The position numbers were made by a program, and so were the translations under genes. From Bacteroides sp. (GTDB taxonomy: Bacteria > Bacteroidota > Bacteroidia > Bacteroidales > Bacteroidaceae), in contig SUXW01000006.1 of NCBI GenBank assembly GCA_015060765.1, positions 1 to 64,000 on the forward strand: a DNA stretch of 64,000 nucleotides. The letters run 5' to 3'. Within the stretch, counting starts at the first letter, position 1; each line of letters opens with the position of its first letter. The notes under the pieces are model-generated. The model had not been told where the DNA came from and ran no database searches. It saw nothing but the letters and a program-made list of their open reading frames with translations. Of the stretch, positions 37,846 through 53,322 are shown in pieces.

Positions 37846-37892
37846 AAATATTCCCTCCCATAAGTTTTCAGTACTTTTGGGAGGGAATATTT
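37846..37892. terminator. Bidirectional terminator between gcvP and the exonuclease gene
   Basis: AAATATTCCCTCCCA (37846-37860) and TGGGAGGGAATATTT (37878-37892) form a perfect 15-bp stem that ends in A/T runs on both sides. Confidence 0.8.
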
Positions 37893-37953
37893 AATTCATT
37901 GATAATCATCTGAAATACAGTGTCAAAAGGATACAATTCTCTTGCCACTCTTG

Positions 37954-38448
37954 TCACAATATCTCTCTCGCAATCCAAGCACAAGCCTCTGCATCGGCAA
38001 GGGCATGGTGATGATTCCTTAATTGGTATCCACATCGGGCGGCTACCGTATGCAGTTGATAATTGGTCAATCCTTTTGGGAAGACTTGACGGGCTGCTTG
38101 ATAGGTACAATGAAATTCATAATCGGGATAATCCATCCGGTAGCAACGGAATACAGCCTTGAGGCAACTCTCATCGAACGATTTGTTGTGTGCAACAAGC
38201 GGTAAACCTTCTATCAGAGGTTCAATCTGTTTCCAGACTTCAGGAAAGAGAGGAGCCGATTCTGTATCGTCTCGAGTGATGCCATGCACCTTCGTACACC
38301 AATAGTTGTAATAATTGGGTTCTGGTTGGATCAGGGAATAGAATGAATCCACAATTTCTCCATCCCTAACTATCACCACCCCTACACTACATACACTTGT
38401 ACGTTCTTGGTTAGCCGTTTCAAAATCTATTGCAGCAAAATCTCTCAT
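37954..38448 (-). CDS. DEDDh 3'-5' exonuclease (DnaQ/PolC-epsilon type)
   Basis: The 164-residue protein carries the four DEDDh residues: Asp8 and Glu10 in AAIDFETAN, the Asp in VAHNKSFDESCL, and His and Asp in HHALADAEAC. It matches small stand-alone epsilon-like exonucleases that trim DNA or RNA ends. It is 33 bases downstream of a short WYL-like remnant and shares that remnant's promoter. The in vivo role is unknown. Confidence 0.88.
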   Translation of the reverse strand: MRDFAAIDFETANQERTSVCSVGVVIVRDGEIVDSFYSLIQPEPNYYNYWCTKVHGITRDDTESAPLFPEVWKQIEPLIEGLPLVAHNKSFDESCLKAVFRCYRMDYPDYEFHCTYQAARQVFPKGLTNYQLHTVAARCGYQLRNHHHALADAEACAWIAREIL

Positions 38449-38481
38449 GGTTTCAGCTTCTATACTTATCCCACATCTATT

Positions 38482-38577
38482 TTATTGCAGCGATAACCTT
38501 TCTTCAAAGGTGATTCGTTTGGCTTTGTGAATTGTTTCAACCAACCAGATATATTTATTCAATAAGTTTACTGCCAT
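38482..38577 (-). pseudogene. Remnant of a WYL-family regulator N-terminus (31 codons)
   Basis: The minus-strand ORF starts MAVNLLNKYIWLVETIHKA, continues KRITFEE and then reaches a stop after RLSLQ. The first 26 residues match, from memory, the start of Bacteroides WYL-domain transcription regulators (usually about 300 residues), after which homology ends. A perfect -7 box lies 24 bases upstream, so the piece is probably still transcribed and leads into the exonuclease gene. It could instead be kept as a short leader ORF. Confidence 0.6.
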
Positions 38578-38600
38578 AGCTAAAAATTTTAATCATACTA

Positions 38601-38608
38601 CAAATATA
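38601..38608 (-). promoter_or_regulatory. -7 promoter element for the WYL remnant and exonuclease
   Basis: TATATTTG on the minus strand, an exact TAnnTTTG match. Confidence 0.6.
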
Positions 38609-38693
38609 AAAAATAGCTATGCAATATGGAGACATAAGATGAGAAAAAGTTAATATGACATGTTACTATAATAGATTTATACATCTTTTTGTA

Positions 38694-39455
38694 CTACCAC
38701 TCTTCCAGGTGACATTCTTTTTCAATCCTATTTTCTATATCATCCGGTAAATCAGGGAAAAAGTCCAATCCCGTAATACGCTCCACCTGATCGATGGAAT
38801 TTACATACGAATCGAGCGGCTTGTTACCGGTCGTATTCTTATATATAAAGCCAATGGCACGTGGTTCACCTTTCTCCACACCTGCCAATATCACTTTAAA
38901 GAACGCCTCCGGCACACGTATTTTATGTTCCTTCCCGATGGTTCCATAAAGCGGATTCTTATAAAGAATAGGGCCACATACTATATAGATAGTACTTTCC
39001 ATGGCCCATCTACGACATGCCTTCTCCAACTCATGCCAATCTCCCCCATTCAAGTTAGGATGTTGCGGACAAATGTTCGTCATATAAAAGCTCTCTTTCA
39101 TGGCCTGTCCACTCCAACGGCTATCCCCTGCCGGACACATGTGCCCCCTGTCATAACCACTATTGGCATAATCTTGCGTTACAACCGCATCTTTCTCATT
39201 TATATCTGGATCAGGATTGAAGCGATACCCTTTCCTGCTCACCTTTTCCGCCAATCGGTTCTTATCCAACTTCCATGCCACCCAGTTAGGAATGTTATAT
39301 TCTTTATTGAAAGAAACCGTATATCCTGTTCTTCGAAGTATAATTCCTTTCGACGGATTCTTGGATTGAGGAATTTCAAGATGGGTTTGAGCAGATAAAG
39401 GTGCTATTAAAAAGAACAATAATAACCCTACATATTTCATAAATATTCTTTTCAT
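38694..39455 (-). CDS. Secreted DNA/RNA non-specific endonuclease (NUC1 family)
   Basis: The start at 39455 (MKRIFMKYVGLLLFFLIAPLSAQ) gives a clean signal peptide; an alternative ATG is five codons later. The 253-residue protein has the beta-beta-alpha-metal nuclease motif DRGHMCPAGD with the catalytic His, followed by FYMTNICPQHPNLNGG with the metal-binding Asn. It is probably periplasmic or secreted and degrades nucleic acids for nutrients or in defence. It is 26 bases downstream of a TPR lipoprotein gene, the last gene of the minus-strand run that includes the tubulin-like system. Confidence 0.88.
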   Translation of the reverse strand: MKRIFMKYVGLLLFFLIAPLSAQTHLEIPQSKNPSKGIILRRTGYTVSFNKEYNIPNWVAWKLDKNRLAEKVSRKGYRFNPDPDINEKDAVVTQDYANSGYDRGHMCPAGDSRWSGQAMKESFYMTNICPQHPNLNGGDWHELEKACRRWAMESTIYIVCGPILYKNPLYGTIGKEHKIRVPEAFFKVILAGVEKGEPRAIGFIYKNTTGNKPLDSYVNSIDQVERITGLDFFPDLPDDIENRIEKECHLEEW

Positions 39456-39481
39456 GCCAGCAAAAGAATTATATGAGTGCC

Positions 39482-40417
39482 CTATTTGGACAACAAACTG
39501 TTTATATGAGCTTCCGCATTCTCTGCATCCATTTCTTTGGCAGCCTTCAAACAATCATCCGCTTTATCATCTTCTCCTAATTTTCTGAAACATGCCGATG
39601 CATAGCAATAGATCAGATAACCAAACTCACTGACTGTTTCTTCATCTTCAGCAGCCGAATTCAATAAAGACAATGCATTCTTATAGTCTTCCAACTCAAA
39701 TAAAGACATTGCCATAAATACTTGATTGGTATAACAATCTTTAGGATTATTTTGTGCCACACAATGATTATCTATATCCAATCCTATTGCTAAAGCAGAA
39801 CGATGATCTCCTTTTCTTATAAAATAATATTGCAGGAATTTCTCCAATTCAATATTGGTAGAATCCAGTTCTAATGCTTCAGCAGCATAAGAACCCATTT
39901 CTTCATAAGCTTCATGTTCTGCAAATATACGAACTGCTGCTATATAATGATTGATAGCCAATACCTTTTCATTTCTGTTCCTATACACATCTGCCAATAT
40001 CACATACGGCCGTGCGTAAGACGGATTACAATCAATGGCCAGCTTATATGCAATGATAGCTTGAGCCGTATCCCCTTTAGCCAATAATACACCACCCATT
40101 TCATTATAGAGTAATTGTGGTTTGGAAGATACCGGCAAACTATCTTTCAACACCTGAAGAGCCTTATCATAATCACCCAAGAAAGCATAAGCATCAGCAC
40201 AATACAAGACACCGTTATTAGTCTTCACCCCCATAGACTTTAATGAATCCAACAACGAAAGCATTCGTTCCCCTTCTCGCCTGTCTTTACATGCATTAAG
40301 AGAGTCTAACAGTTGAACAATAACCTTTTCTTGGTTTTCTTTTCTCGTATTACTACATGACAAAAGAAATACTGACACTAAAGACAGTATGTACCATTTA
40401 TATGAACGGATAGTCAT
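39482..40417 (-). CDS. TPR-repeat lipoprotein
   Basis: The start near 40417 (MTIRSYKWYILSLVSVFLLSC) gives a lipobox, with the lipidated Cys near residue 21. The 311-residue protein consists of helical TPR-like repeats (NGVLYCADAYAFLGDYDKALQVL, ARPYVILADVYRNRNEKVLAI and further units). It is probably an outer-membrane or periplasmic lipoprotein that acts as a protein-binding scaffold. It starts a few bases after the NAGPA-like gene stop and is cotranscribed with it. Confidence 0.8.
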   Translation of the reverse strand: MTIRSYKWYILSLVSVFLLSCSNTRKENQEKVIVQLLDSLNACKDRREGERMLSLLDSLKSMGVKTNNGVLYCADAYAFLGDYDKALQVLKDSLPVSSKPQLLYNEMGGVLLAKGDTAQAIIAYKLAIDCNPSYARPYVILADVYRNRNEKVLAINHYIAAVRIFAEHEAYEEMGSYAAEALELDSTNIELEKFLQYYFIRKGDHRSALAIGLDIDNHCVAQNNPKDCYTNQVFMAMSLFELEDYKNALSLLNSAAEDEETVSEFGYLIYCYASACFRKLGEDDKADDCLKAAKEMDAENAEAHINSLLSK

Positions 40418-40421
40418 AATT

Positions 40422-41135
40422 CTATTTCTTAAAAATGATCCAGTTTGTTGCAAAGTTATGAGTTTTTGGATGAATCTCTATTACATCTCCATCATTTTTT
40501 CTATACCATGAATGATTCCATCCGCGTCCCATATCCAAATACAAAGCATGAGTCACTCCTAATTTTTCAAGAAATGAAATAAAGTCAGCATAACTCACTA
40601 CTCTTTTCGAATCTATAATACACAACTTACCTTTATATTCACATAGTGCCCGATATTGAAAACGACTCTGTAGCTTACGAAAGGAAGGTTGTGTTACACC
40701 ATTATAAATTATCATATTTTGTGCAAACCCCATTCCTTTATTGCTTGCTGATATTTTTATATCTTCATTGTATGATTGAAGAGAAAACTTCCATCGATTA
40801 TCGTAATAGAGAAATCCGCCAGTATTTGGTTTACATTTAAATCCTTTGTATAATACTCCTCCACTAACATGGTTTCCAGCAATATTACTATGTTTAAACT
40901 CCTTTAAAAGTTCTCCTGTAAAAGAAGCACCGCAACAAAACAATACATCCTTACTATCCTTATCCGGCATATTTCCACAAACCAAATCAATAGTTGAATA
41001 TTGAGGATAATAAATGATTAATTCAGATATAGACTCAATCAAAACTGTTGGTTCTTGCTTTTTAAAATCTGTTGTTTGAGCAGATGTAAAATTTAAACCT
41101 ATCAATATAATAAAAGTCAATAACAATAATCCCAT
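40422..41135 (-). CDS. Secreted NAGPA/phosphodiester glycosidase-like protein
   Basis: The 237-residue protein has a signal peptide (LLLLTFIILIGLNFTSAQ). The core includes CCGASFTGEL, AGNHVSGGVLYKG, GMGFAQNMIIYNG, ALCEYKGKLCIIDS and THALYLDMGRGWNHSWYR. The order resembles the NAGPA (phosphodiester glycosidase, DUF2233) fold, where LNLDGGGS is the usual late motif. Here that motif is LYLDMGRG, so activity may be altered. It is 118 bases downstream of the small broken ORF behind the papain-like protease gene and may belong to that operon. The family call is tentative. Confidence 0.5.
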   Translation of the reverse strand: MGLLLLTFIILIGLNFTSAQTTDFKKQEPTVLIESISELIIYYPQYSTIDLVCGNMPDKDSKDVLFCCGASFTGELLKEFKHSNIAGNHVSGGVLYKGFKCKPNTGGFLYYDNRWKFSLQSYNEDIKISASNKGMGFAQNMIIYNGVTQPSFRKLQSRFQYRALCEYKGKLCIIDSKRVVSYADFISFLEKLGVTHALYLDMGRGWNHSWYRKNDGDVIEIHPKTHNFATNWIIFKK

Positions 41136-41252
41136 TTATTCTCTATAATACCGTTTTTCTACTTATACATAAAACTAATAATAATATGGCTAACCTACAT
41201 CAAACCATATTTCAAACTTCTCTTCCTAATGGTATTTAATTAATGTATGACT

Positions 41253-41410
41253 TTAATCACTTTGAGCTTCTTCCATAGATGCAATATCTAAATCCAAATC
41301 AGATTCATTGAATGAGACCATTGGTATAGCTTCTGCACCATGAGTGCCTGCAATTGCAGCAATAGATGTAGTAACAATTCTCCTAATTAGATTCTTAAAG
41401 TTTTTTTCAT
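41253..41410 (-). pseudogene. Small peptide gene with frame broken at an A7 tract
   Basis: Fifteen bases after the protease stop, with AAGG upstream, an ATG (41408-41410) is followed by seven As. Read straight, it stops after seven codons. With one extra A it would encode 52 residues: MKKNFKNLIRRIVTTSIAAI, then AGTHGAEAIPMVSFNESDLD, then LDIASMEEAQSD. The coding-like remainder has a basic, weakly hydrophobic N-terminal half and an acidic tail, like a short exported or precursor peptide. The in-frame version lacks any start codon because a TAG lies just upstream. Explanations are a real one-base loss, slippage at the A-tract during transcription, or a sequencing error. Confidence 0.5.
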
Positions 41411-41425
41411 ACTACTTATACCTTA

Positions 41426-44400
41426 TTAATTATCGCTTACCAAATCAACTATATCAACCATTTCTAAATTTATTTTTTGAAAAACAATTAGTTTATATGG
41501 TGCAACAATACTTTCAGACGATGGTTTTTTCTGGAAGTACTGTGGATAATCTTTATTCCATTTATCTCTATCTTCTTGAGTTTCTAAATGAAGAAAAATA
41601 TGTTTACCTATTTCATTCCTTTTGTCTATGTTTTTAATTGCTGTTTGTAGGAAATACTCACTTTTCCTTTCCAAAAGTGGTAATAAGATACTTACACTAG
41701 AATATGATTGATTAAGATATGGATACTCTTTTCCTTGAATGTATGATAATAAGTTGAAATCTTTAAGTGGTTCAAATAATATATTAATCAATTCACGTTT
41801 AATTTTAGTTTTGTACTCTTTTATACCTTCCTCACTCAAATTATATCCATTCAAATAATCATATAGATACAATCCTTCAGTTATTCTTTCTCCTTCTTTT
41901 TCAAAATATTCATTCAATATGTTATTAGATAATAATGAAACGAATGGTTCCATTGTTGGAGAATCCATATTGTCTACTTTTTCTAATTCTTCTTTATACC
42001 ATACGGATAAATTACCAACATATGATTTCATTAATATGTATTTGTTGTTTAGTTCCTTTTGTAGGTCACTTAGTTTGTCTATAATCATTCCTGCGAAATA
42101 TAAACGTAAGTGTAAAAGGTCATTTTCTTTTTTCTTCCGATTTATATCCAATGCTATTTGTTGCGCTTTTTCTTCCAATTCATCTTTTAGTATCCGATAA
42201 TAATGTTTTCGTTGAGAAACATAACAAACTAATATGACAGAAGCTAAAAAAGCACCTCCAATTAAATACCAATTCCAATCATAGGTAAGCCAATCTGAAA
42301 TTTCATTAAATAGATAACTCCAAGCAAAAATTATAAATAAAATAATAGATAATATTGTTATAAACACTTTATCAAATATTTTATATCCACCAAGAATATC
42401 GCTCCTTTCTTTATTGATAAAAGTATTATATTTTTTTGTTGTATTAATTATTTCCTCTTTAATCCGACCTTTTGCTTTTTCTATAATTTCATTTCTTTTA
42501 CTATTATTGCATAAGGTTTGAATCAATGATTCATAATTAATGCGAAGATTTTCATATTTTTCTTTATTATCATTCAACAATTGCTTTTCTTCATCTATTA
42601 AAATACGAATGATAGAATGTCGAATTTCCATATCCATTTTATTAAAAGCAATAGAGGCCTGTTCTCTTACTCCTTTTACTTCTTCTCCATCATTTATTGC
42701 GGTAATAATACATGCCGAATTTGTGAAATTCTTATCATCTATATACGAAAAAGGAATATAGCAATAGCCATTATCTCCGAATCCCTTTCCCCACGAATTT
42801 CTGACAATATAAACTTTGTCCTCTTCACTGTATCCACAGATAACCATAGCATGATTACCAAATTTATTCTCTTCTATTTCTATATCAGTAGGCCTATATA
42901 TAAAACCTCTTGATTGATTTCCGAATGAATCATATATTTTCAAAGAAATAGTTACAGGATATCCTTCAGACAAAGCGGAAGTTATATCATTATGGTTAAT
43001 CTTTACATTCTTTGCAACCTTAATTCTATGAGACATTGCATCAGTATATGCATCTTTTGAAGGCTCTAAATCATACTGACCTATATCATATTTACAATGT
43101 TTTTCTGAACAGACACCATATTTTGTCATAGATTCGACAACTCCATATAAAGAGGAACCGGTGTCCTCCATGTTTCCTGAATCTTTTAAAACATTAAAAT
43201 ATACAAACCGTTCACTTAAATCTTCTTCCCTTTTAGTCTTCTTCAATATGTATTCATATATAGAAACCATAGAAAAAACGGAACATGTCCCTAATTGACC
43301 TTGATCTTTTACATTAGTAAACAATGGGCGAAGATCAACAGATTGCCTATGGGTATTGTGCGCTTCATAATCTTCCTGTAAAGGTTTTTCTTCTATGTTT
43401 AACAACTTGTATGTTGTGTTTCCATAAGTAAAACCATTTTCAGTCAGACGTATATTACTTTGTTCGTTTTTATGTAATTGTTCTCTTAGTTCATCAAGTT
43501 CCTTACTTTTTTGTCTAATATAATTGGTAGATTCTTTTATATCTATTCTTAACTTTTTAAGTTCATCCAATGGTAAATATACATTCCCTTCATTATCACA
43601 AGGAGTATTAAGAACACCAGGAATGATAATCTTATCCCCATTTTCATCTGTTATTCTTTCTATTAGTTTATTATTTTCTGTAATATATAGATTTACAGCT
43701 TCTGCATCACAATCATCAATCGTTAACTGTTGCTTATGAAATTGATACCCTTTCAATAATTCATCATCCGTTCCTAATATTTGTGCTAAAACTGCTTGTT
43801 TTTCTGGCAATGACAAATCTTTCCTGTTAATAAAATCTTGAATATTTCGCGTTATTTTAGCTATTTGTTCATCTAATTTGGGAGCTATTTCTACAATAAT
43901 TTCATCATCTGATTTTCCTTTTTTAATCAGTGGTTTTACAATCTTTTCATAAAAGTCAGATACTAAATTAACATGACCTTCTAAACTGTTTTGTGCTATT
44001 TGAGAAACTTTATTTACTTCAACTTCTTCTTGAGTAACATTTTCTCTATCCAAAACTTTTAAATATGCTTTTCGTAACAAATAATGAACAAAATGAAACT
44101 TATCAAGTCTCAATACAGATAATCCAACTGCATTAATTTCACATTGTTCGTATTCTTCAGAAAGCGGGAAAATGGAAGTATAATTTTCAATACATACTAA
44201 TGCTAATTCTCCAATAATAGCAATCATCGAATCGTGATTTAAATTCAATGCAACACCTTTTGCATTACGATTTTGTATCATAATGAAACGGTGTTTAGTT
44301 GAATTCTTATAGTTTATTATTTCTTTGCTTATAGTTTTTGTATTCTCTTTAAACTCTTTATAATGTAAGGATAATTGTTTACAATCTTCATCACTTAAAA

Positions 44401-44866
44401 ATAAATGTGACATATCATCAGAGAAACCAACAATATCGACTTTGTATGATTGCCTGATCTTTTCCAAACTTTTCATTATCAACTTGGTTTCATGCCATAA
44501 TAATTTGCTATATAGTGGCAATAAAAGAAACAAGTGTAAAGAATCACTATCCCCTTGATTGTTTATAGTTAAGGTTTTATCGTAAAAGTCCGAGAAGAAG
44601 TGTTCCAACTCCTCCTCGGTCTTTAAGGTAACAGCATTCTGTATATCAGTCATGTACTCATCTTCCAATCCTGAACAAAACTCGTTGTTCATAATCAGAC
44701 TTTTTTCAGCTAAACTTATAGTACGTATTCCGTCTTTGTTTTCCATATTGATTACATGAAAGAAACTGTCGGTATTACCTTCACCGTACATCATTACGTA
44801 CTTTTTCAAATCGATGCTAATATTGTTGTAATCAGTACCTAATACAAGAAATGCTGTATGTCTCAT
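41426..44866 (-). CDS. Large membrane protein with embedded papain-like (C1A) cysteine protease
   Basis: The 1146-residue protein has an unknown N-terminal region (1-500, with a coiled coil near 440-475). A C1A-type peptidase domain follows at about 510-725: oxyanion Gln522 and nucleophile Cys528 in DQGQLGTC, His672 in GNHAMVICGY and Asn690 in VRNSWGKGFGDNGY. A helical region leads to two transmembrane helices at about 833-851 and 866-883, then coiled coil and an unknown C-terminal domain. There is no signal peptide, so the protease domain is probably cytoplasmic, unusual for papain-like enzymes. It starts 12 bases after the tubulin-like gene and looks AT-rich compared with housekeeping neighbours. 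Confidence 0.8.
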   Translation of the reverse strand: MRHTAFLVLGTDYNNISIDLKKYVMMYGEGNTDSFFHVINMENKDGIRTISLAEKSLIMNNEFCSGLEDEYMTDIQNAVTLKTEEELEHFFSDFYDKTLTINNQGDSDSLHLFLLLPLYSKLLWHETKLIMKSLEKIRQSYKVDIVGFSDDMSHLFLSDEDCKQLSLHYKEFKENTKTISKEIINYKNSTKHRFIMIQNRNAKGVALNLNHDSMIAIIGELALVCIENYTSIFPLSEEYEQCEINAVGLSVLRLDKFHFVHYLLRKAYLKVLDRENVTQEEVEVNKVSQIAQNSLEGHVNLVSDFYEKIVKPLIKKGKSDDEIIVEIAPKLDEQIAKITRNIQDFINRKDLSLPEKQAVLAQILGTDDELLKGYQFHKQQLTIDDCDAEAVNLYITENNKLIERITDENGDKIIIPGVLNTPCDNEGNVYLPLDELKKLRIDIKESTNYIRQKSKELDELREQLHKNEQSNIRLTENGFTYGNTTYKLLNIEEKPLQEDYEAHNTHRQSVDLRPLFTNVKDQGQLGTCSVFSMVSIYEYILKKTKREEDLSERFVYFNVLKDSGNMEDTGSSLYGVVESMTKYGVCSEKHCKYDIGQYDLEPSKDAYTDAMSHRIKVAKNVKINHNDITSALSEGYPVTISLKIYDSFGNQSRGFIYRPTDIEIEENKFGNHAMVICGYSEEDKVYIVRNSWGKGFGDNGYCYIPFSYIDDKNFTNSACIITAINDGEEVKGVREQASIAFNKMDMEIRHSIIRILIDEEKQLLNDNKEKYENLRINYESLIQTLCNNSKRNEIIEKAKGRIKEEIINTTKKYNTFINKERSDILGGYKIFDKVFITILSIILFIIFAWSYLFNEISDWLTYDWNWYLIGGAFLASVILVCYVSQRKHYYRILKDELEEKAQQIALDINRKKKENDLLHLRLYFAGMIIDKLSDLQKELNNKYILMKSYVGNLSVWYKEELEKVDNMDSPTMEPFVSLLSNNILNEYFEKEGERITEGLYLYDYLNGYNLSEEGIKEYKTKIKRELINILFEPLKDFNLLSYIQGKEYPYLNQSYSSVSILLPLLERKSEYFLQTAIKNIDKRNEIGKHIFLHLETQEDRDKWNKDYPQYFQKKPSSESIVAPYKLIVFQKINLEMVDIVDLVSDN

Positions 44867-44878
44867 AACTAAAATATT

Positions 44879-47617
44879 TTAAAGTTCTTTTTTTACATAT
44901 TCCAATTCTTCTGTAATTAATTTGCGAATTGCTTCAAACCCCTTTTGCTTGATTTCATCTTTCGTCAAATTAATCTGAGAATATTTCATGAAATAATCAG
45001 CTTTTGCATCTTCTACTTTTCTTTGCATTCGATTGACACCTTTAGTCTTTTGGTATTGATTGAAGAATTCATTAAACTCTTTTCTAATAGTGGCTTTATG
45101 ACGTTTAAACTGTTCAAACGCTTCGTCACGATATTGGCCCAATTTAACCCAATTATCATCCAATGCATCTCCCAATTCTTCACTCTTGAAATAGTACATA
45201 TTATCTTCATTCTTGATAAGATTAAAAATAAGACCTTTGACCCATAATTCAAGGCTATCATCAATTGCAGCTTTAGGATAAATACTATAATCTTCACGTT
45301 GCATTTTGTTATAAATATTTATATCAAAATGACAGCAACAATTACAATTATCATACTTATCTTTATAGGTAACTATAGGAGAAATTGCATAAGCAGGTAA
45401 CACTCCTAACTGGCGATATATAATGACTCTATCTTTCACTCCAATGCTTGCAAAATCCACATCAATATTACCTTGTAATAATTTCTTAAACTTATTGTCT
45501 TTATATAAACGAGAATCTTTCTTACTAGGAACACCTATATAATAACTGTTAGAAGGTCTTTCGTTAGGTGTATAACCTCTGTAATCATATTTAAGAAGAG
45601 GATTTGATTTATTAATGGCTATACGCAACATTTTTTCAAAACTATCTTCTTCCATATCATCCAAGACATTGTCTATTGTTTTATTAGCAAGTTCTTTAGA
45701 TGTAGTCAATCTATTTGTGTAATCCAATAGGACGTTTATAATCTCATCAGCATTTTTTAAATCAAAATCAAATATTCCATTCGTTAATGTCAAACCTTTT
45801 AGAAATTCTGAGATTTGTATTTCTTCATCTTTTATTTGTATCTGACCTACATATTGTTGAGCCAAATCAATTTGGAACGTTTGTGAAGCTCTACCTACTC
45901 GGTTTTGTATCTCAGCAATTCTATTAGTCAACTCTGCTGATATACCCATCAACATTTTCTTGATATTGCTTATTTTAGTATACATATCAATCAATGCGGT
46001 TTGCAAACCATTATAAAATGTAATAGCAGCATTTCGTCTGATTATTTCACGTTCACATATTGCCTTTCGTGTTGCTACTTCCATTACACCATTAGCATAT
46101 TCTTCAAGAACACTTCCTCTCTTGAAAAATCTACCATTGTAGTCAGATAAATCTTTAATAGCTATTTTTAAAGATGATTCAATTTTTGGCAATTGTTCCT
46201 TTAGCTCTTCAACTTCATTATTCATTTCATTTAAAAAAAGATTAACCTGTGCTTGAATGGCAACGATGATGTTTTCAACACCGCCTATACCACATTCTTG
46301 ATTAATCTCCTTTTTAATTAACTTATGAAGTTCATCAACAACTCTATTGCTTAATTCTTTAATTTTTCCATCAACAATACCATCTTTAGGCTTTGCAGTA
46401 TTTAAATAGCTATCAACTTCCGATGTAGCATTAGCTTTATCATCAATGGATGTGAATTGGAATGATGGTTGTTTAGGCAAAATATAATCAATAACATTGT
46501 CAAATCCATTATTTTCCCTAATGTTTACTTCAGGTGAGTCTATCCATGCATTAACAATGGTATCAGTATCTATACAACTATTCAACAAACGTTCAATTAA
46601 TCTTTTGGCTGCTTTGTCTGCATAAATATCTCTAAGATCTTCTCCATGAAACATGATTTCGCATACACCAAGACCCGCAGCCCAAGCTTTCTTTTTCTCA
46701 ATATCCATAGAGCCTTCACGGATATTCTTCTCAAGATTATCACTAACACTGGCTGCAGCAGTTGATAATTCACCAGCAGATGTAACCAAAGCCAAGCTAA
46801 CCATTTCAGTTAATTGGTCAACATGCAAATAAGTATCATTGTTTGAATTTTTATTGTCTACAAAAAAGAATGCATTAAAAGGTTTGTCATTGGTGTGTTG
46901 TACATAATTAATGTAGTCAAAAGCAACTTTATCACTATTTAAATTCAAATGCATCAACCAATCCAAATCCTGAATAGCACCATATGCATTCGGCTTTACT
47001 TTTGCCATACCCGTTGTTGACATTGCTTCAAATACATCTGGTAAAATACCATATCCTGTCAACTTACATTGCGGAGCACATTTACGCAATAAATATGCCA
47101 TATTTAAGAATGTACCACATCCAGTTCCACCACATACAGAGAATATCATGTGAATTTCCACTTCGGTAGAAAGTAATTCATAACCCATATTACTGGATAT
47201 TGTTGCATTTGTAATATCATCTATACGTGTTCTAATTTTATGTTCAACATCTACATGATTAACAGTCAAAGCAAAACGGCCGTTACTTCTTACTTGTCCG
47301 GCTCCCAATGTCATTGACGTTAATGCATATAAATTCTCTTCAGGCAACCATCCAAAATGATTCTTATTTACTTCGTATATAGGTCTGGCATCATCCACTC
47401 TAATAGGTAATTGTTCATCAGGACTTAACGAAACTTTACCATATTTAGATTCCAGTTCTTTTTTATAAACGCCTCCATCTGTATCTACACCCAAGAATCC
47501 TATCATAGGAGGGACTTTTCCATAAGTCTCCAAAAAAGTCTTTTTTGTATTGAGCAATGCACTCATACCTGTACCGCCTAATCCAACATATAGGCATCTT
47601 CTAATCTTTGTTGCCAT
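44879..47617 (-). CDS. Tubulin/FtsZ-like GTPase (Tubulin_2 type)
   Basis: The 912-residue protein starts RRCLYVGLGGTGMSALLNTKK, a glycine-rich nucleotide-binding loop (12-17). It has GVDTDGG near 43 and the tubulin signature as VCGGTGCGTF (162-170). The segment FEAMSTTGMAKVKPNAYGAIQDLDWLM is typical of the divergent Tubulin_2 family. Residues after about 400 are long helices and coiled coil. Such proteins are distinct from cell-division FtsZ (about 380 residues) and have been proposed to act in membrane remodelling. It is the central gene of the lipoprotein-vWA-membrane-tubulin-protease operon. Confidence 0.82.
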   Translation of the reverse strand: MATKIRRCLYVGLGGTGMSALLNTKKTFLETYGKVPPMIGFLGVDTDGGVYKKELESKYGKVSLSPDEQLPIRVDDARPIYEVNKNHFGWLPEENLYALTSMTLGAGQVRSNGRFALTVNHVDVEHKIRTRIDDITNATISSNMGYELLSTEVEIHMIFSVCGGTGCGTFLNMAYLLRKCAPQCKLTGYGILPDVFEAMSTTGMAKVKPNAYGAIQDLDWLMHLNLNSDKVAFDYINYVQHTNDKPFNAFFFVDNKNSNNDTYLHVDQLTEMVSLALVTSAGELSTAAASVSDNLEKNIREGSMDIEKKKAWAAGLGVCEIMFHGEDLRDIYADKAAKRLIERLLNSCIDTDTIVNAWIDSPEVNIRENNGFDNVIDYILPKQPSFQFTSIDDKANATSEVDSYLNTAKPKDGIVDGKIKELSNRVVDELHKLIKKEINQECGIGGVENIIVAIQAQVNLFLNEMNNEVEELKEQLPKIESSLKIAIKDLSDYNGRFFKRGSVLEEYANGVMEVATRKAICEREIIRRNAAITFYNGLQTALIDMYTKISNIKKMLMGISAELTNRIAEIQNRVGRASQTFQIDLAQQYVGQIQIKDEEIQISEFLKGLTLTNGIFDFDLKNADEIINVLLDYTNRLTTSKELANKTIDNVLDDMEEDSFEKMLRIAINKSNPLLKYDYRGYTPNERPSNSYYIGVPSKKDSRLYKDNKFKKLLQGNIDVDFASIGVKDRVIIYRQLGVLPAYAISPIVTYKDKYDNCNCCCHFDINIYNKMQREDYSIYPKAAIDDSLELWVKGLIFNLIKNEDNMYYFKSEELGDALDDNWVKLGQYRDEAFEQFKRHKATIRKEFNEFFNQYQKTKGVNRMQRKVEDAKADYFMKYSQINLTKDEIKQKGFEAIRKLITEELEYVKKEL

Positions 47618-47641
47618 AATATTTATAATTTTAGTTACTAT

Positions 47642-48553
47642 TTACGATAATGTTATTTTAACTTTCACATTTAATGATGAATGTTCTATTTCATATTCCA
47701 TTTGTTTATTCAACGATGTTGTGAAAGGATTAATGGTATACTTACGGTTACCGACAAATCTACCTCCTTTTCCTTTGGGTTGAATCTCCCATTCGTCAGG
47801 CCACAATTCATTTTTTTCATATACAATCTTTCCCGTAAACATTCTATTGATGGGACCTTGTTTTTTAGAGGAATTAGTTATCACTAATTTTCTTGCACCA
47901 TATATACGTTTGGTGGAAAAATAGATTCCATCAGTAAATTGTATATTGCCTATTTTAAAAGTAGGATATATTATAGGTTTTATAATGAAGAACCAAATCA
48001 AAATAAGACCAATCAGCACTAACAAACTGATATTCAATCCCAATTTCAAAGGATTGACGATGTCATTCTTTTCAGCTTTTAATTCTAAGAGCAAAGGCAA
48101 TGAATCTTCTTCTGTAGCAAACTCATTGATACGATCAAAGCCTCCATTATCCAAGACTTTCAAGAACCATTTGTGTATTCCTTCTTTAGCTTCCGGAGTA
48201 AATTCAATACCTAATTGAATTTCTTTATCTTGAGGTGTAATTAACAATATATTGTTTTCACAAAGGACATCGTTTTTATATAGACGTATTTCATCCTTTA
48301 CAGGAATATAAGACTCTTCTTCTGTCTTTTTATACAATCCGAACTTTACATTGCCCACACGACCATTTGCGTCTTCATTAGTTTCAAAGCAAATTGTCTT
48401 AGTCATTTTTATGGGTTCATAATCCTTGAACAGAAAATCTGTATAATAATCTGTTTCTCCCCACAACATTGAAGTATCCATTTCTTTCTCACCACAAGAA
48501 ACAAATATACTCGCAATGAATGCTATAACGATAAAATGATTAATCCTTAACAT
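47642..48553 (-). CDS. Lipoprotein with an internal transmembrane helix and cytoplasmic tail
   Basis: I do not recognise this 303-residue protein. It has a lipobox (IAFIASIFVSC, Cys20), a periplasmic region of about 150 residues, a strong transmembrane helix at about 171-194 (LGLNISLLVLIGLILIWFFI) and a C-terminal beta-rich domain of about 105 residues that should face the cytoplasm. This could link the secreted vWA protein to the cytoplasmic tubulin-like protein. It overlaps the vWA gene end by 14 bases and lies 24 bases before the tubulin-like gene. Confidence 0.7.
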   Translation of the reverse strand: MLRINHFIVIAFIASIFVSCGEKEMDTSMLWGETDYYTDFLFKDYEPIKMTKTICFETNEDANGRVGNVKFGLYKKTEEESYIPVKDEIRLYKNDVLCENNILLITPQDKEIQLGIEFTPEAKEGIHKWFLKVLDNGGFDRINEFATEEDSLPLLLELKAEKNDIVNPLKLGLNISLLVLIGLILIWFFIIKPIIYPTFKIGNIQFTDGIYFSTKRIYGARKLVITNSSKKQGPINRMFTGKIVYEKNELWPDEWEIQPKGKGGRFVGNRKYTINPFTTSLNKQMEYEIEHSSLNVKVKITLS

Positions 48554-49541
48554 ACACTTTCAATATTTTTTCGGGTTTATTTATCAATTCCAAACAACAT
48601 TCTTCATTCAGTAATGAAACCAAAGGATACAATTCTTTATTCTCCACTTCAAAATAAAGAGAAATCTTTTCATTGGCATCCTGAGGTAAAGCATGCTTCA
48701 AAGAGTCATAACTTTGTTTTTGCTTAAGATCAAGTTTAATTTGACCATTATTAATGGTAGTTGTTTGGTCAATTTCTACATATGGATTAGAATTACAATA
48801 ACAATGCACTTTCAAATCGTCAGGTATAGTTGTTTTCTTTTTACAATCTACCCTAACTATCAGTTTCTTTCCTGCATCATCCTTTATGTTATACTTTAAA
48901 TTGTCTTGAGGTAACAATTCCACGAAGTTAAAATCGGTTCCTTCACCTTTATACATACGACATGCTCCATCAATCGCTTCTATCAACTTGTCGTTTTTCG
49001 CAAATTGAGTGAGCATAACATAAAATGCATATGCATCATTCTTTTCTGCAAAATCACACCATTTACGTATAACATCCAATAGTGTTTCCAATGGGTATCT
49101 CTTATCATTTTGTTCTCCATCAGTCAAAAGAATAAGGACATTACGCTTATCCGGTTTTATTAATGTATTCATGACTTCTGTCATGGGTACAGTGATATTG
49201 GTACTTGTTGTATCTATATATACTGCAGACTTTATCTTATTAATGATTTCTTTTTTTCCAGCATCTGTAGCTTTTACATTCCATTTATCAAGAATACTTG
49301 TTTGGAATGGAAATACCCATATTTCTGTTTGTTCATCAATGATTGTATTGATGTCTTTTTCTAATGCAGTTATTACTTTATCATAGATATCAGGTGTTCT
49401 ACCTTGAAATCCTTTCATAGACAAAGTAACGTCCCACAGATAAATTCGTCTTTCGTTCTTAAAACGATTTTGTTGTGCCACAACATCTACTGAAAATGCA
49501 TAAACGACACAAAAGAAGAAGAATAATTTAAAACCTTTCAT
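48540..49541 (-). CDS. Secreted von Willebrand factor A (vWA) domain protein
   Basis: The start at 49541 (MKGFKLFFFFCVVYAFSVDVVAQQ) gives a signal peptide and sits 4 bases after the preceding lipoprotein gene; a longer frame would overlap that gene. The 333-residue protein has a vWA fold with a MIDAS variant: DVTLS (37-41, DxTxS instead of DxSxS), a Thr near 114-117 and LLTDGEQND at about 139-147. A beta-rich C-terminal part follows. vWA domains bind partner proteins through a metal ion, so it is probably the periplasmic adhesive part of the operon's complex. Confidence 0.8.
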   Translation of the reverse strand: MKGFKLFFFFCVVYAFSVDVVAQQNRFKNERRIYLWDVTLSMKGFQGRTPDIYDKVITALEKDINTIIDEQTEIWVFPFQTSILDKWNVKATDAGKKEIINKIKSAVYIDTTSTNITVPMTEVMNTLIKPDKRNVLILLTDGEQNDKRYPLETLLDVIRKWCDFAEKNDAYAFYVMLTQFAKNDKLIEAIDGACRMYKGEGTDFNFVELLPQDNLKYNIKDDAGKKLIVRVDCKKKTTIPDDLKVHCYCNSNPYVEIDQTTTINNGQIKLDLKQKQSYDSLKHALPQDANEKISLYFEVENKELYPLVSLLNEECCLELINKPEKILKVYVKD

Positions 49542-49545
49542 CGTT

Positions 49546-49911
49546 TTATTCCAATATATCATTAATAAATTCAGAAGCCTGTTCACCCAAATCCTTTAAA
49601 GCACTACCTACATCTTTCAAACCTTGTTTGGCCATAACAGCATAGTACCGGGTTTTCAGTTCGAGAATCAAATCTTCATCATTAGAAGATAATTCATTCT
49701 CAAATTTATTGTAGTAAGTTTCACTAAAATCAAGATACTTTTTCTTAATGGAAGTAAGTTCTTCGGAAGAAAAACTTTTTTTCTGTTCTATACCAATTAC
49801 AAAGTTTTCAAAAGACTTCAAATAAGCTTCTTTTGTATTGATGCCGCAAGAAATAAGCAATACGACCATACATAAACAAAGAAATGAACTAATCAATCTG
49901 CGTATGTTCAT
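49546..49911 (-). CDS. Small lipoprotein, first gene of the tubulin-like operon (DUF6565-like)
   Basis: The 121-residue protein has a lipoprotein signal (FLCLCMVVLLISC, lipidated Cys near 22) and a mature part of about 100 residues predicted to be helical (EAYLKSFENFVIGIEQ..., SETYYNKFENELSSNDEDL). It resembles small Bacteroidetes lipoproteins of the DUF6565 type, a recall-based comparison. No catalytic residues are evident. It heads the operon and lies 4 bases before the vWA gene. Confidence 0.7.
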   Translation of the reverse strand: MNIRRLISSFLCLCMVVLLISCGINTKEAYLKSFENFVIGIEQKKSFSSEELTSIKKKYLDFSETYYNKFENELSSNDEDLILELKTRYYAVMAKQGLKDVGSALKDLGEQASEFINDILE

Positions 49912-49947
49912 AGTAGTACATTTAAGGTTTATAGCCTATTGTCCGCA

Positions 49948-49959
49948 GATTCCCGAATC
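49948..49959. promoter_or_regulatory. Palindrome upstream of the tubulin-like operon
   Basis: GATTCCCGAATC has 5-bp inverted arms (GATTC/GAATC) and lies 37-48 bases before the first ATG of the operon. It could be an operator. Confidence 0.3.
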
Positions 49960-49984
49960 AGACGATTTATTGATTATTATATAC

Positions 49985-50024
49985 AAAAAAGACGTGGAAC
50001 CTGTACCTGTTACTCGTTCCACGT
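49985..50024 (-). terminator. Rho-independent terminator or attenuator upstream of the tubulin-like operon
   Basis: On the minus strand ACGTGGAAC (50016-50024) and GTTCCACGT (49992-50000) form a perfect 9-bp stem followed by C and six Ts. It lies 74 bases upstream of the operon's first gene and on the same strand. Confidence 0.75.
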
Positions 50025-50086
50025 TTAGAGGCCTTCGCATTGCCCAGCTTGTCGAAACGAGCAACGCAGAAGCCCCACGCCGATAT
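49985..50086 (-). ncRNA. Candidate structured RNA ending at the terminator
   Basis: Directly upstream of the terminator on the minus strand, 50029-50074 folds into a long interrupted hairpin: GGCTTC, GCGTTGC and CTCG pair with CAAG, GCAATGC and GAAGGCC around a TTTCGA loop. A long stem with bulges followed by a terminator is the look of an independent small RNA such as 6S/Bacteroidales-1 RNA, or of a leader that controls the operon. The class cannot be assigned without a covariance search. The 5' end is not determined. Confidence 0.45.
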
Positions 50087-50297
50087 GTATATAACAATCT
50101 ATCCGTACTTATAAACTATAAAGTACGTTAGTGTATATAAACACACCCGGGACATCTACCGTTGCTTAGTTTTTGACAAGCTTTTGAAAGGTGCGAAGTT
50201 TCTAAACGTCAAAACATAAGCGTAAGTAAACGCCTTTTCCTAAAATATTCCCCACCCCCCAGCCTCTTTTAAAAAGCTTCGGCGTGAAGAACATTTG

Positions 50298-50305
50298 CAA
50301 ACATA
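50298..50305 (-). promoter_or_regulatory. Possible -7 element driving the candidate RNA or operon
   Basis: TATGTTTG on the minus strand matches TAnnTTTG. It is the only clear match I found between the deacetylase gene and the tubulin-like operon. Confidence 0.35.
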
Positions 50306-50369
50306 TAAAATTAATTTATAAAAAGAAAAGAAATGTGAAGAAAAATATAACAAGAGTTTAAATGTGCAT

Positions 50370-50485
50370 TTTTACCTACATCCCTACAGCGTCCCTGTGT
50401 ATCAAGACATTAACCCTTACGGGAGCTTGATTTTACCTACATGAAAAGGCATTTTTCCCTACATTATTAGGTGTTTTACCTACAT
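50370..50485 (+). repeat. Four TTTTACCTACAT motifs
   Basis: Copies lie at 50370-50381, 50431-50442, 50453-50464 (TTTTCCCTACAT) and 50474-50485. The last three are spaced 22 and 21 bases apart, about two helical turns. A related inverted pair, AGGTAAAATGCA (50523-50534) and TGCATTTACCT (50582-50592), follows. Confidence 0.65.
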
Positions 50486-50606
50486 TTTTGGGATAATAAC
50501 AACGCATTTAAAAGATGAAACGAGGTAAAATGCAACTATAAAAAGAAGGTATATCCATATAAATTCACTTAAAATGCTATATGCATTTACCTAAAAAAGT
50601 AGTTCT

Positions 50607-50700
50607 AAAACCAAATCAGCGTCGCCGATTCTGTGATCCGCGTGGCCGATTGACGAATCAGCGTCGGCGATCGCAGAATCGGCACCGCTGATTTGGTTTT
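50607..50700. repeat. 94-bp palindromic element made of four 21-bp units
   Basis: Outer arms AAAACCAAATCAGCG (50607-50621) and CGCTGATTTGGTTTT (50686-50700) are perfect 15-bp inverted repeats. Inner arms GCCGATTCTG (50624-50633) and CAGAATCGGC (50674-50683) are also perfect, and GATC pairs with GATC further in, closing on GATT-GACG-AATC. Unit starts at 50615, 50636, 50657 and 50678 are exactly 21 bases apart, each of the form ATCnGCGnnGnCGATT. Confidence 0.85.
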
Positions 50701-50805
50701 CTTTCGGCATTTTTAGTACTTTACATATAGATTATTTATACTTTATATAGGGATATAATCATTTTTATTCTTCAGGAAAGATTCAATCAGGTCCGACCCC
50801 ATCTG

Positions 50806-50909
50806 TTGCAAGAGTGGCAAGAACACGAATGCTCTTGCCACCTTATTTCCGATGAATATCAATGATTTAGAACCCCGTTGCAAGAATGGCAAGGGATTCG
50901 ATGTTCTTG
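50806..50909 (+). repeat. Pair of 32-bp direct repeats
   Basis: Copies at 50806-50837 and 50878-50909 share TTGCAAGA(G/A)TGGCAAG, then CGA and ATG(C/T)TCTTG, with about six differences. The first copy also contains an 8-bp hairpin (TGGCAAGA/TCTTGCCA). They lie just past the deacetylase 3' end. Confidence 0.6.
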
Positions 50910-50920
50910 TAGTAGAAGTA

Positions 50921-51634
50921 TCAATCGGTCAGTACATTGCTATAAAGTTTATTTCTTTCGGGAGTAACATTCTTGACCTTGAACAGTTCGGGAACGGTAA
51001 CAAACTGGTATCCCTGTTCCTTCAAGGTTGGAATGATTACATCGAGAGCAGCAACCGTCGAATCATTGCCTTCAAAGTCGTGCAAGAGGATAATCTGTCC
51101 GTCGGCAGCATTCTTGATGACCATTTCTGCACGTTGGGCAGCAGTTACTTGGGGTTCCCAATCGTTGCATCCTATACCACAAATAAAGGGTAGTTCGATG
51201 TTTTCGTACATCACATCATTGACCGCAATGAATGGAGGACGGAAGAAAGTAGGACGTACTCCTAAATACTTTTCGACCATGGCCGAAGTATATTCTATTT
51301 CATCCTTTATCTGTTGGGCAGTGAGTTGAGGCATGGCAGTGTGTGTCTGCGAATGGTTCTGAATATCGCATCCCATATCGAATGCCCGCTTCATCACCAC
51401 TGCACTCTCTTCGTTGATATTCTTTCCAATAACGAAGAACGATCCTTTTACATCATGCTTTTCCAGCATATCGAGCATCTTGACGGTGGTAGTGACATTG
51501 GGTCCGTCATCAAAGCTCAATGCTATGAGTTTCGAAGATTCAATGCTGTCGGTCTTTACTTCCTGACCGGCTTTCTGATTTTGTCCGCAACCGAAGAACA
51601 TACCTACAGCTGCCATTAACAATAACTTTTTCAT
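50921..51634 (-). CDS. Polysaccharide deacetylase lipoprotein (CE4 / NodB fold)
   Basis: I chose the ATG at 51634 (MKKLLLMAAVGMFFGC), which gives a standard lipobox; an upstream ATG at 51655 overlaps the fhs stop by one base and is also possible. The 237-residue protein has the CE4 motifs: SFDDGPN (catalytic base and metal Asp), NHSQTH (metal His-x3-His), RPPF and a late LLHDFEGN. It removes acetyl groups from a cell-wall or extracellular polysaccharide. It is the last gene of an SPFH-fhs-deacetylase run. Confidence 0.88.
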   Translation of the reverse strand: MKKLLLMAAVGMFFGCGQNQKAGQEVKTDSIESSKLIALSFDDGPNVTTTVKMLDMLEKHDVKGSFFVIGKNINEESAVVMKRAFDMGCDIQNHSQTHTAMPQLTAQQIKDEIEYTSAMVEKYLGVRPTFFRPPFIAVNDVMYENIELPFICGIGCNDWEPQVTAAQRAEMVIKNAADGQIILLHDFEGNDSTVAALDVIIPTLKEQGYQFVTVPELFKVKNVTPERNKLYSNVLTD

Positions 51635-51654
51635 GGTCTTATGTTTTAGATTCA

Positions 51655-53322
51655 TTATGACAATCCTTCTATTTCTCCATTAACGATATCAATATGCAAG
51701 GCCTGAGGTTCTTTAGGCAATCCCGGCATACGCATAATTTCTCCGGCAATCACCACCAACATTTCGGCGCCGGCATTGATGACTATATCCTGTACATGGA
51801 ATTCAAAATCGTTCACCGCGCCATAGAGTTTCGGATCTGTAGAGAAAGAATATTGCGTCTTCGCTATACAGATAGGGAAACGGGTGTAACCCAATGTTTC
51901 GATCATCTTCAATTTTTTGCGGGCTGTAGCACCATAAGTAATCAAATTGGCTCCATACAAGTTGCATGCTACCTTTGACACTTTTTCTTCCACCGTATCC
52001 TCATCTACATAGGTGTGGTTAAGAGGTTCCGATGGTTGCTTTTCAATCGTTTCCACTACCAGTTGCGCTAATTCCTTCGCTCCTTCTCCTCCATCGGTAA
52101 AGGCATTGTTGACGGCAAATCCCACTCCTTGGTCCTCGCAGTGCTGGCGTACATAGGCTATTTCTTCATTACTATCATCACCATAACGATTGAAAGCCAC
52201 TACCACTTGTTGACCGAAGGAATGCAGATTGCGCAGATGCTTGTCCATATTGGCAATACCTTTCTTCAGCGCTTCAAGGTTGGCTTCCTTTATCTTGTCT
52301 TGCGATACTCCGCCATGCATCTTCAAGGCACGGGCAGTAACTACCAATACCGTAAGTTTCGGTGCGATACCTGCTTTCCTACATTTGATGTTATAGAATT
52401 TTTCGGCACCCAAGTCGGCACCGAATCCAGCTTCCGTAATGGTATAGTCACCGAAAGTCATGGCCAACTTAGTAGCAAGGATGGAATTGCATCCATGAGC
52501 AATATTCGCAAAGGGTCCTCCATGTATAAAGGCAGGCGTATGTTCGGTTGTCTGCACCAAATTGGGCGACAAGGCATCTTTCAGCAATACAGTAATGGCA
52601 CCGGCTACTCCCAAATCCTTGACAGTAAAAGGATTTCCTTCGTAAGTAAATCCAAGCAGGATATTCTCAATGCGTCGACGCAAGTCGTCTTCGTCTGTCG
52701 AAAGACAAAGGATAGCCATAATTTCGGATGCCGGTGTGATATCGAATCCCGATTCTTGCGTAATGCCGTTGGTCTTCGGTCCCAATCCGGTAACGATATA
52801 ACGAAGCGAACGATCGTTCACATCGAGAACGCGTTTCCACAACACTTCCTTCAACCCGATACCATTGTCGCGGTTCTGATACATATAATTATCGAGCAAG
52901 GCCGAAATCATGTTATGAGCCGAAGTGATGGCATGGAAATCGCCCGTAAAATGCAGGTTTATCTTTTCCATAGGTAATACTTGGGCGTATCCCCCTCCTG
53001 CTGCTCCACCTTTCATTCCGAAACAAGGTCCCAACGATGGTTCCCGAAGAGCAACGATGGCCTTCTTACCTATCTTGTTCAATCCAAGTGCCAACCCGAT
53101 GGATACCGTAGTCTTTCCAATACCTGCTTTCGTGGGTGTAATGGCAGTTACCAATATCAGGTTGTTGTTCCGTACTTTTTCGTCATCTATCAGTTTCTCG
53201 TCTACTTTAGCTATATAGCGTCCGTAGTTGCTGATATGCTCCAATGGAATATCAGCATCCATGGCTACCTTCTTAATCTTTTTCAGCTCGATGCTACGAG
53301 CTATTTCAATGTCTGATTTCAT
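51655..53322 (-). CDS. fhs: Formate-tetrahydrofolate ligase
   Basis: The 555-residue enzyme makes 10-formyl-tetrahydrofolate from formate, THF and ATP. It has the P-loop [19 protein letters not shown] near residue 65 and the family signature [20 protein letters not shown]. The C-terminal region includes [13 protein letters not shown] and [18 protein letters not shown]. Length is normal. It lies 13 bases after the SPFH gene. It supplies one-carbon units alongside the glycine and serine genes in this window, though not in their operons. Confidence 0.96.

What the first reader, a model, noticed from the sequence alone, without database searches (positions are those of the whole stretch)
41253..49911. 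Uncharacterised operon: lipoprotein, vWA, membrane lipoprotein, tubulin-like GTPase and membrane-bound papain-like protease
Five minus-strand genes packed with 4, -14, 24 and 12 bases between them encode parts on every side of the inner membrane: periplasmic lipoprotein, secreted vWA protein, a lipidated protein with a transmembrane helix and cytoplasmic tail, a cytoplasmic polymer-forming GTPase, and a large membrane protein carrying an intact Gln-Cys-His-Asn protease site. This suggests an envelope-spanning machine in which a tubulin-like filament and a protease are coupled to an outside sensor. Divergent FtsZ/tubulin-like proteins with vWA neighbours are known, but I know of no described function for this combination. 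The genes look more AT-rich than flanking housekeeping genes, hinting at horizontal transfer. A defence, stress or membrane-remodelling role is possible.
Basis: partly seen in the sequence, partly recalled or inferred. Interest (0 to 1): 0.8.

Follow-up and report, generated by a model that had tools for sequence, protein, structure and literature searches.

The report
Tubulin-like operon with built-in protease
A bacterium that seems to belong to the Bacteroides group has acquired a gene set, found in many relatives, that pairs a tubulin-like cytoskeletal protein and an outside-facing sensor with a membrane-anchored, apparently tubulin-derived partner carrying a papain-type protease; no test of what it does was found.

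Summary
The five genes and their spacing are as described, except that the protease gene ends at 41426, not 41253; the extra stretch is a truncated HxsA-like fragment. The operon looks foreign: GC3 0.21-0.28 against 0.42-0.47 in flanking genes, and 1 of 61 genomes of the genus has the tubulin-like gene. That protein belongs to the FtsZl1 (Tubulin_2) family, which Makarova and Koonin predicted in 2010 to work with vWA proteins in membrane remodelling. New here: in 57 related loci the next gene is the papain-type protein in 48 of the 53 that can be read; the other five have a large papain-less gene there. This partner ("B") looks like a degenerate, membrane-anchored FtsZl1 paralogue with an inserted papain domain, its active site almost invariant. 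The vWA and lipoprotein genes are one membrane-spanning protein in 28 of 49 loci. The fifth gene (DUF6565) is optional. I propose a vWA sensor whose transmembrane tail controls A/B assembly at the inner membrane, which switches on a cytosolic protease. Parts and conservation are shown; polymerisation, coupling and substrate are inferred. Defence is possible but without positive support. New variant of a known, uncharacterised kind.

The parts
49546..49911 (-). DUF6565 lipoprotein (121 aa); optional accessory
   Evidence: Pfam DUF6565 1.7e-9; lipobox residues 19-22 read from the N-terminus; relatives at 4 of 57 loci
48540..49541 (-). secreted vWA-domain protein (333 aa), MIDAS-like D-V-T-L-S
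   Evidence: Pfam VWA 9.5e-7; D-x-[ST]-x-S by pattern in 21 of 21 split and 26 of 28 fused relatives
47642..48553 (-). bitopic lipoprotein (303 aa): lipobox, periplasmic domain, TM about residues 173-191, about 110-residue cytosolic tail
   Evidence: hydropathy; corresponds to the C-terminal half of vWA fusion proteins (hhalign 5.9e-65, fusion columns 344-609); lipobox pattern in 12 of 21 split relatives
44879..47617 (-). FtsZl1/Tubulin_2 protein 'A' (912 aa)
   Evidence: Pfam Tubulin_2 1.4e-46; G-G-T-G-x-G invariant in 53 of 53 aligned rows
41426..44866 (-). partner 'B' (1146 aa): degenerate tubulin-like N-domain, papain domain, TM hairpin, helical C-terminus
   Evidence: Pfam C1 2.7e-19; AF2 pLDDT 87.6; B profile without papain vs Tubulin_2 paralogues 4e-13
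43907..44866 (-). B residues 1-320: probable tubulin-like (Rossmannoid) domain
42689..43444 (-). B residues 475-726: papain-type protease domain (Q522, C528, H672, N690)
42215..42367 (-). B residues 834-884: two hydrophobic segments; N- and C-terminus predicted cytosolic (inference)
   Evidence: hydropathy; all 46 relatives have at least one such segment, 45 of them near residues 796-921, the short L033 protein at 592
41253..41411 (-). truncated HxsA-like fragment, no in-frame start codon
   Evidence: tblastn to genes downstream of the same operon in L005 (47%, 2e-8), L020 (55%, 4e-6) and L017 (44%, 0.002)
38694..39554 (-). secreted DNA/RNA non-specific endonuclease; possible accessory
   Evidence: Pfam 2.2e-56; same family downstream on the same strand at 9 of 40 loci
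39482..40453 (-). TPR lipoprotein, probably part of the same acquired block; role unknown
   Evidence: TPR hits; 1 of 61 genus genomes at E <= 1e-30; GC3 0.30
40422..41135 (-). secreted protein, sub-threshold phosphodiester-glycosidase similarity; same block
   Evidence: NAGPA 0.036, below cut-off; GC3 0.22

Best explanation
This is a horizontally acquired FtsZl1-class operon. Its core is (i) a periplasmic vWA sensor attached to, or fused with, a single-pass protein with a cytosolic tail, (ii) the FtsZ-like protein A, and (iii) partner B, a degenerate tubulin-like paralogue of A, anchored in the inner membrane by a hairpin and carrying a papain-type protease on the cytosolic side. Proposed working: the vWA/lipoprotein unit reports a change in the envelope through its transmembrane helix; the tail nucleates or releases GTP-dependent A/B assembly at the membrane; assembly brings B protomers together and switches the protease on, which cleaves a cytosolic or membrane substrate (in some genomes perhaps HxsA-type proteins encoded next door). 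SHOWN by computation: gene content, conservation, fusion, catalytic residues, homology of most of B to Tubulin_2 paralogues. PREDICTED: topology and folds. INFERRED: that A polymerises, that A and B form one assembly, that the vWA unit gates it, that the protease is switched by assembly, and the substrate.
For: A is Tubulin_2 at 1.4e-46. B directly follows A in 48 of 53 readable loci; the other five carry a large papain-less gene there (L051, L053, L057, L058) or after one short ORF (L055). In the Ignavibacteriae locus L058 that gene is itself Tubulin_2 (1.5e-9) and matches A at both ends (2.8e-7 and 5.4e-8). B with the papain part removed matches that group almost end to end (4e-13). The B N-domain model has CetZ2 and FtsZ as its two best chains in the VIA second look. 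The catalytic residues are near-invariant and the fold is papain. vWA and lipoprotein are one polypeptide in 28 of 49 assigned loci; the split genes map to adjacent, non-overlapping halves of the fusion (columns 52-340 and 344-609), with about 8 changes between fused and split on the A tree, so they act as one transmembrane unit. A distant FtsZl1 locus (L109) has a gene with a sub-threshold vWA match and, directly after the tubulin gene, a trypsin-like peptidase with an N-terminal hydrophobic stretch seen by eye (PF13365 7.2e-22): an unrelated protease in the same place.
Confidence: 0.4

Rival explanations
1. Membrane-remodelling/vesicle machine as predicted for FtsZl1 in 2010: A/B filaments shape the inner membrane, and the papain domain only trims or disassembles the filament.
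For: FtsZl1 + vWA are the core of that prediction (PMC2875224); B has membrane segments; papain-less B-like genes exist.
Against: It does not by itself explain the near-invariance of the protease site; no evidence for remodelling in any member was found.
Confidence: 0.25
2. Maturation and export of a modified surface protein: the protease cuts HxsA-type precursors made and modified by the adjacent HxsBCD enzymes.
For: In L005, HxsB, C and D are over the NCBIfam cut-off and an HxsA-like gene is below it; relatives of B, C and D follow in L017, L020 and L026. That is 4 of 32 loci with at least 5 kb downstream, against HxsB anywhere in 9 of 198 genomes of the order. The window keeps an HxsA-like remnant.
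Against: 28 of 32 such loci show no Hxs module; the window's genome (84% complete) has no HxsB over cut-off; 3 of the 4 loci belong to one tubulin clade.
Confidence: 0.15
3. Anti-phage or abortive-infection system: envelope or phage sensing triggers a suicide protease.
For: Patchy and horizontally moved; sensor plus amplifier plus hydrolase logic; secreted nuclease as a frequent neighbour. Some neighbouring proteins in relatives match defence models (66 PADLOC families over 123 proteins).
Against: No PADLOC match for six proteins of the window; no PADLOC family matches more than 2 of the 123 neighbours, though the number of different proteins is not shown and there was no control; the site in this genus carries efflux, peptidase and glycosidase genes.
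Confidence: 0.12
4. Chance cluster of unrelated genes.
For: Only the optional DUF6565 gene fits this.
Against: Same-strand tubulin-papain order in 48 of 53 loci and gene fusion.
Confidence: 0.02

Closest known systems
FtsZl1 / Tubulin_2 (PF13809) vWA operons, Makarova & Koonin 2010 (PMC2875224)
   Same: Same tubulin-like family, vWA neighbour in the majority of operons, several membrane-associated partners.
   Different: The words protease, peptidase, papain and lipoprotein do not occur in the paper's main text (supplements not readable here). No OmpA, kinase or P-loop GTPase hit among the five proteins. Here the partner appears to be tubulin-like itself, with an inserted papain domain.
Peptidase family C1 (xylellain, cathepsins)
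   Same: Fold and Gln-Cys-His-Asn site.
   Different: Domain sits inside a large membrane protein between a tubulin-like domain and a helical/TM region; predicted cytosolic.
Alpha/beta tubulin and BtubA/B (recalled, not tested)
   Same: Two tubulin-superfamily proteins encoded side by side.
   Different: B is degenerate and membrane-anchored; no filament shown.
HxsABCD His-Xaa-Ser peptide system (NCBIfam TIGR03976-03979)
   Same: Modules follow the operon in four relatives; truncated HxsA-like remnant in the window.
   Different: No HxsB over cut-off in this genome; association optional.

Membership tests
[quoted passage not shown]
   PF13809 159.9 bits against cut-off 27, residues 9-341
FtsZl1 (Tubulin_2) | GTP-binding loop GGGTG(S/T)G (superfamily signature in PMC2875224) | tested here: inconclusive
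   Window reads C-G-G-T-G-C-G; G-G-T-G-x-G invariant in 53 of 53 rows, the two other positions vary
FtsZl1 (Tubulin_2) | Central coiled coil and mostly helical C-terminal domain | not tested
   No coiled-coil program or fold was run on A
FtsZl1 (Tubulin_2) | Operon with a vWA gene (majority of operons in the paper) | tested here: met
   Window; a vWA/lipoprotein gene directly upstream of the tubulin gene at 53 of 57 loci
FtsZl1 (Tubulin_2) | Polymerisation / membrane remodelling | not testable with these tools
   Prediction only, also in the literature seen
Peptidase C1 (papain) | Papain fold | tested here: met
Peptidase C1 (papain) | Catalytic Gln-Cys-His-Asn | tested here: met
   Present in window; near-invariant in relatives, one Cys-to-Ser row
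Tubulin superfamily (partner B) | Homology to a Tubulin_2 protein over most of its length | tested here: met
   hhalign 4e-13, columns 44-786 vs 13-798, papain removed
Tubulin superfamily (partner B) | N-domain recognisable on its own | tested here: inconclusive
Tubulin superfamily (partner B) | GTP-binding loop | tested here: not met
   No GGxGxG-type loop in the B consensus; only G10 and G248 invariant. B is therefore called degenerate and tubulin-like, not filed as a GTPase
HxsABCD system | HxsB radical SAM maturase in the genome | tested here: not met
   Best match 71.6 bits against cut-off 370; assembly 84% complete
Known anti-phage defence systems | Match to a PADLOC-DB v2 model | tested here: not met
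   0 hits for 6 proteins at E 0.1

The most novel reading that the evidence does not exclude
A two-subunit tubulin-superfamily assembly in which one subunit is a membrane-anchored, degenerate tubulin with a papain protease inserted in it, so that assembly of a cytoskeletal filament, controlled from outside the cytoplasm by a vWA receptor, directly gates proteolysis: a filament-switched protease.
Probability: 0.3. Interest if true: 0.87.

Novelty: new variant of a known kind. Interest (0 to 1): 0.62.

Why it matters
FtsZl1 proteins have been known since 2010 and I found no report of a test of their function (searches, in an open-access library only). The version described here supplies what earlier context lacked: an enzyme with a readable activity, an intact catalytic Cys to mutate, and gene fusions that show which parts belong together. 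If B is a tubulin-derived subunit, it would be a cytoskeletal protein that became a protease platform, and the open question of what FtsZl1 systems do becomes testable by ordinary substrate-trapping.

Tried and rejected
Rejected or left open: (a) Defence island. No PADLOC hit for six window proteins. Of 133 neighbouring proteins picked I gave 123 to (10 dropped by hand, among them three DUF6565-type genes and several overlapping or doubtful ORFs). They matched 66 PADLOC families at 1e-10, none by more than 2 members (25 families shown), and 115 Pfam families at 1e-8, where only Endonuclease_NS (8) exceeds 3 members (25 shown). How many different proteins matched is not shown and there was no control set, so enrichment is neither shown nor excluded. 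(b) Plasmid or phage carriage: 6 of 72,556 plasmid and 1 of 50,697 phage records, all distant partial matches. (c) Papain protein as a free-standing gene: in 393 order genomes only the window's genome matched full length; 21 others matched the papain part only (at most two candidates scored per genome). (d) The gcvP-fhs site as a special island: 24 genus genomes have both genes on one contig, 114 bp to 148 kb apart (22 of them under 20 kb); the ten cargo proteins I tested include efflux, S9 peptidase, GH3, GH92 and an AAA/nuclease protein. (e) B-like protein of Myroides as query in 296 phylum genomes: nothing, which without a positive control shows nothing. (f) First HMMs for vWA and lipoprotein hit each other because of fusions; one search assigned fused and split loci but its lipoprotein profile was blurred by L060, whose split may be a broken gene; without L060 gave two adjacent, non-overlapping halves. 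Whole-protein Foldseek and VIA lists were filled by papain chains, so the N-domain was folded alone. Foldseek's first 50 rows for it hold no tubulin, which stands against the reading; the VIA second look put CetZ2 and FtsZ first.

Limits: the 57 loci come from a scan with two peptide patterns, so relatives lacking both are missed; close kin of the window's genome may be left out. ORF starts are mechanical. The fused/split label is by length.
Full report
What is there. Pfam hits over cut-off are DUF6565, VWA, none, Tubulin_2 and Peptidase_C1. No NCBIfam model reaches its cut-off and no PADLOC model matches.

Foreign origin. GC falls to 27-33% over 41-50 kb; GC3 is 0.21-0.28 in the five genes and 0.42-0.47 in gcvP, polysaccharide deacetylase and fhs. 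Of 61 genomes of the genus only the window's own has the tubulin-like gene at E <= 1e-100, and likewise the TPR gene at 39482-40453 at E <= 1e-30, so the acquired block probably reaches there. gcvP is found in 59 of 61 and fhs in 52 of 61. In 24 genomes both lie on one contig, 114 bp to 148 kb apart, with different cargo: a variable insertion site, here 13.8 kb. In the nearest relative held, L004 (77% identical tubulin), the operon is also AT-rich (GC 0.313 against 0.465 in its flanks), but over 48 loci with enough flank the mean difference is only -0.011, so low GC is not a general property. In the order the tubulin gene is rare: 3 of 393 genomes at E <= 1e-30; Tubulin_2 of any kind over its cut-off in 7 of 198. 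In a protein database of 5.8 billion, 1092 relatives at E <= 1e-3 were found among the 7996 candidates that were scored.

Comparative anatomy. An alignment of 13 tubulin-like proteins found 57 loci in named genomes. The gene after the tubulin gene is the papain protein in 48 of the 53 loci where it can be read; in four more (L051, L053, L057, L058) it is a large papain-less gene, and in L055 such a gene follows one short ORF. A vWA/lipoprotein gene is directly upstream in 53 of 57. 28 loci have one fused gene, 21 have two, 8 are unassigned. Leaving out L060, whose split may be a broken gene, the upstream gene maps to fusion columns 52-340 and the downstream gene to 344-609 (1e-52 and 5.9e-65). 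On a FastTree tree of the tubulin gene the state changes about eight times, L060 counted (L005, L017, L051, L056 unassigned there). The fusion has a hydrophobic segment near residue 450 in most members, hence a cytosolic tail. The DUF6565 gene has relatives at 4 of 57 loci: accessory.

Tubulin-like protein A. It falls in the FtsZl1/Tubulin_2 family. The G-G-T-G-x-G loop is invariant in 53 of 53 rows. No solved structure matches a 13-sequence profile of it at E 0.1.

Accessory genes. A secreted Endonuclease_NS gene lies downstream on the same strand in 9 of 40 loci with at least 1 kb downstream, 7 of them within 300 bp, in tubulin clades only about 46% identical; the window has one at 38694-39554, 1.9 kb downstream. 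In L005 the downstream genes are HxsD, HxsB and HxsC over the NCBIfam cut-off and an HxsA-like protein below it (42.9 against 121.65 bits); relatives of HxsB, C and D follow the operon in L017, L020 and L026: 4 of 32 loci with at least 5 kb downstream, while HxsB occurs anywhere in 9 of 198 genomes of the order. The window fragment 41253-41411 matches the HxsA-like N-terminus of L005 (2e-8), L020 (4e-6) and L017 (0.002) (E-values within 60 loci); it has no in-frame start codon and stops after 52 codons, and the genome, 84% complete, has no HxsB over cut-off: probably a remnant of a lost module, so Hxs is not needed here. Related FtsZl1 loci G152 (L106) and G427 (L107) have the vWA fusion, A and a papain-less third gene: L107's matches the papain-less family of L053/L057 (2e-97), L106's matches B only by hhalign (3e-5). 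G072 (L109) has FtsZl1, a gene with a sub-threshold vWA match, and a trypsin-like peptidase (PF13365 7.2e-22) directly after the tubulin gene.

Mechanism. The parts span the inner membrane: a vWA sensor with a metal-site motif outside, joined to a cytosolic tail, and inside a tubulin-like protein plus a membrane-anchored paralogue with a protease. The simplest working is that the sensor controls assembly of A with B and assembly controls proteolysis. The first half follows from fusion and gene order; the second is inference, supported by the near-invariant active site and by the trypsin-type peptidase in the same position of one distant FtsZl1 operon.

Known or new. Makarova and Koonin (PMC2875224; I read parts 1 and 2 of 5 and searched passages) defined FtsZl1, its vWA association and the membrane-remodelling prediction, and used a Bacteroides caccae sequence. 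The words protease, peptidase, papain and lipoprotein do not occur in the main text; supplements were not readable. PMC9871819 (passages) treats Tubulin_2 proteins as a separate, sparsely distributed group. PMC5898192 (passages) repeats the vWA/FtsZl1 link. PMC9062424 and PMC6952346 (passages) add nothing on function. Searches combining tubulin-like or FtsZ-like with vWA or von Willebrand and papain, peptidase, Bacteroides or gene neighbourhood gave no paper or one jumbo-phage survey that I did not open (PMC7824862). The family and product names gave nothing further on function in the 15 titles listed or no paper. Of 12 other listed papers that cite the 2010 paper I saw the listing, and passages of three of them (PMC9871819, PMC5898192, PMC6952346). 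The library is open-access only. I therefore call it a new variant of a known, uncharacterised kind.

Noticed in passing
L003 10320-13394 (G000 contig C41): The same genome has a second FtsZl1 protein (1024 aa, Tubulin_2 2.5e-56) followed by a Big_2/MORN protein and five genes without a Pfam hit, no vWA hit among the eight tested; L108 and L110 show a similar gene order and lengths.
   Followed up: partly
L109 1258-7167 (G072): Another FtsZl1 locus with a sub-threshold vWA gene upstream and a trypsin-like peptidase right after the tubulin gene.
   Followed up: partly
L026 8787-13666: Hxs module with three short proteins bearing His-Xaa-Ser repeats (84, 153 and 78 aa; read by eye, the 153-aa one also by pattern) next to the tubulin/papain operon.
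   Followed up: no
window 50614-50692: Four imperfect 16-nt repeats at exact 21-bp spacing (AATCAGCGTCGCCGAT-like) in the intergenic region upstream of the operon; function unknown.
   Followed up: no
window 37831-51655: The gcvP-fhs interval varies between species of the genus and carries different cargo (efflux pump, GH3, GH92, S9 peptidase).
   Followed up: yes
L005 8033-8713, L017 17057-17767, L026 8106-8765: A conserved protein of about 220 aa sits between the papain gene and the Hxs genes, in two loci after the endonuclease; no NCBIfam hit in L005 and L026 and no Pfam hit in L005 (L017 not tested).
   Followed up: no
L020 19735-20589, L017 21012-21767, L038 17904-18638: Ion-channel-like genes recur downstream of the operon (L020 matches a K-channel model below its cut-off; the others by similarity).
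   Followed up: no
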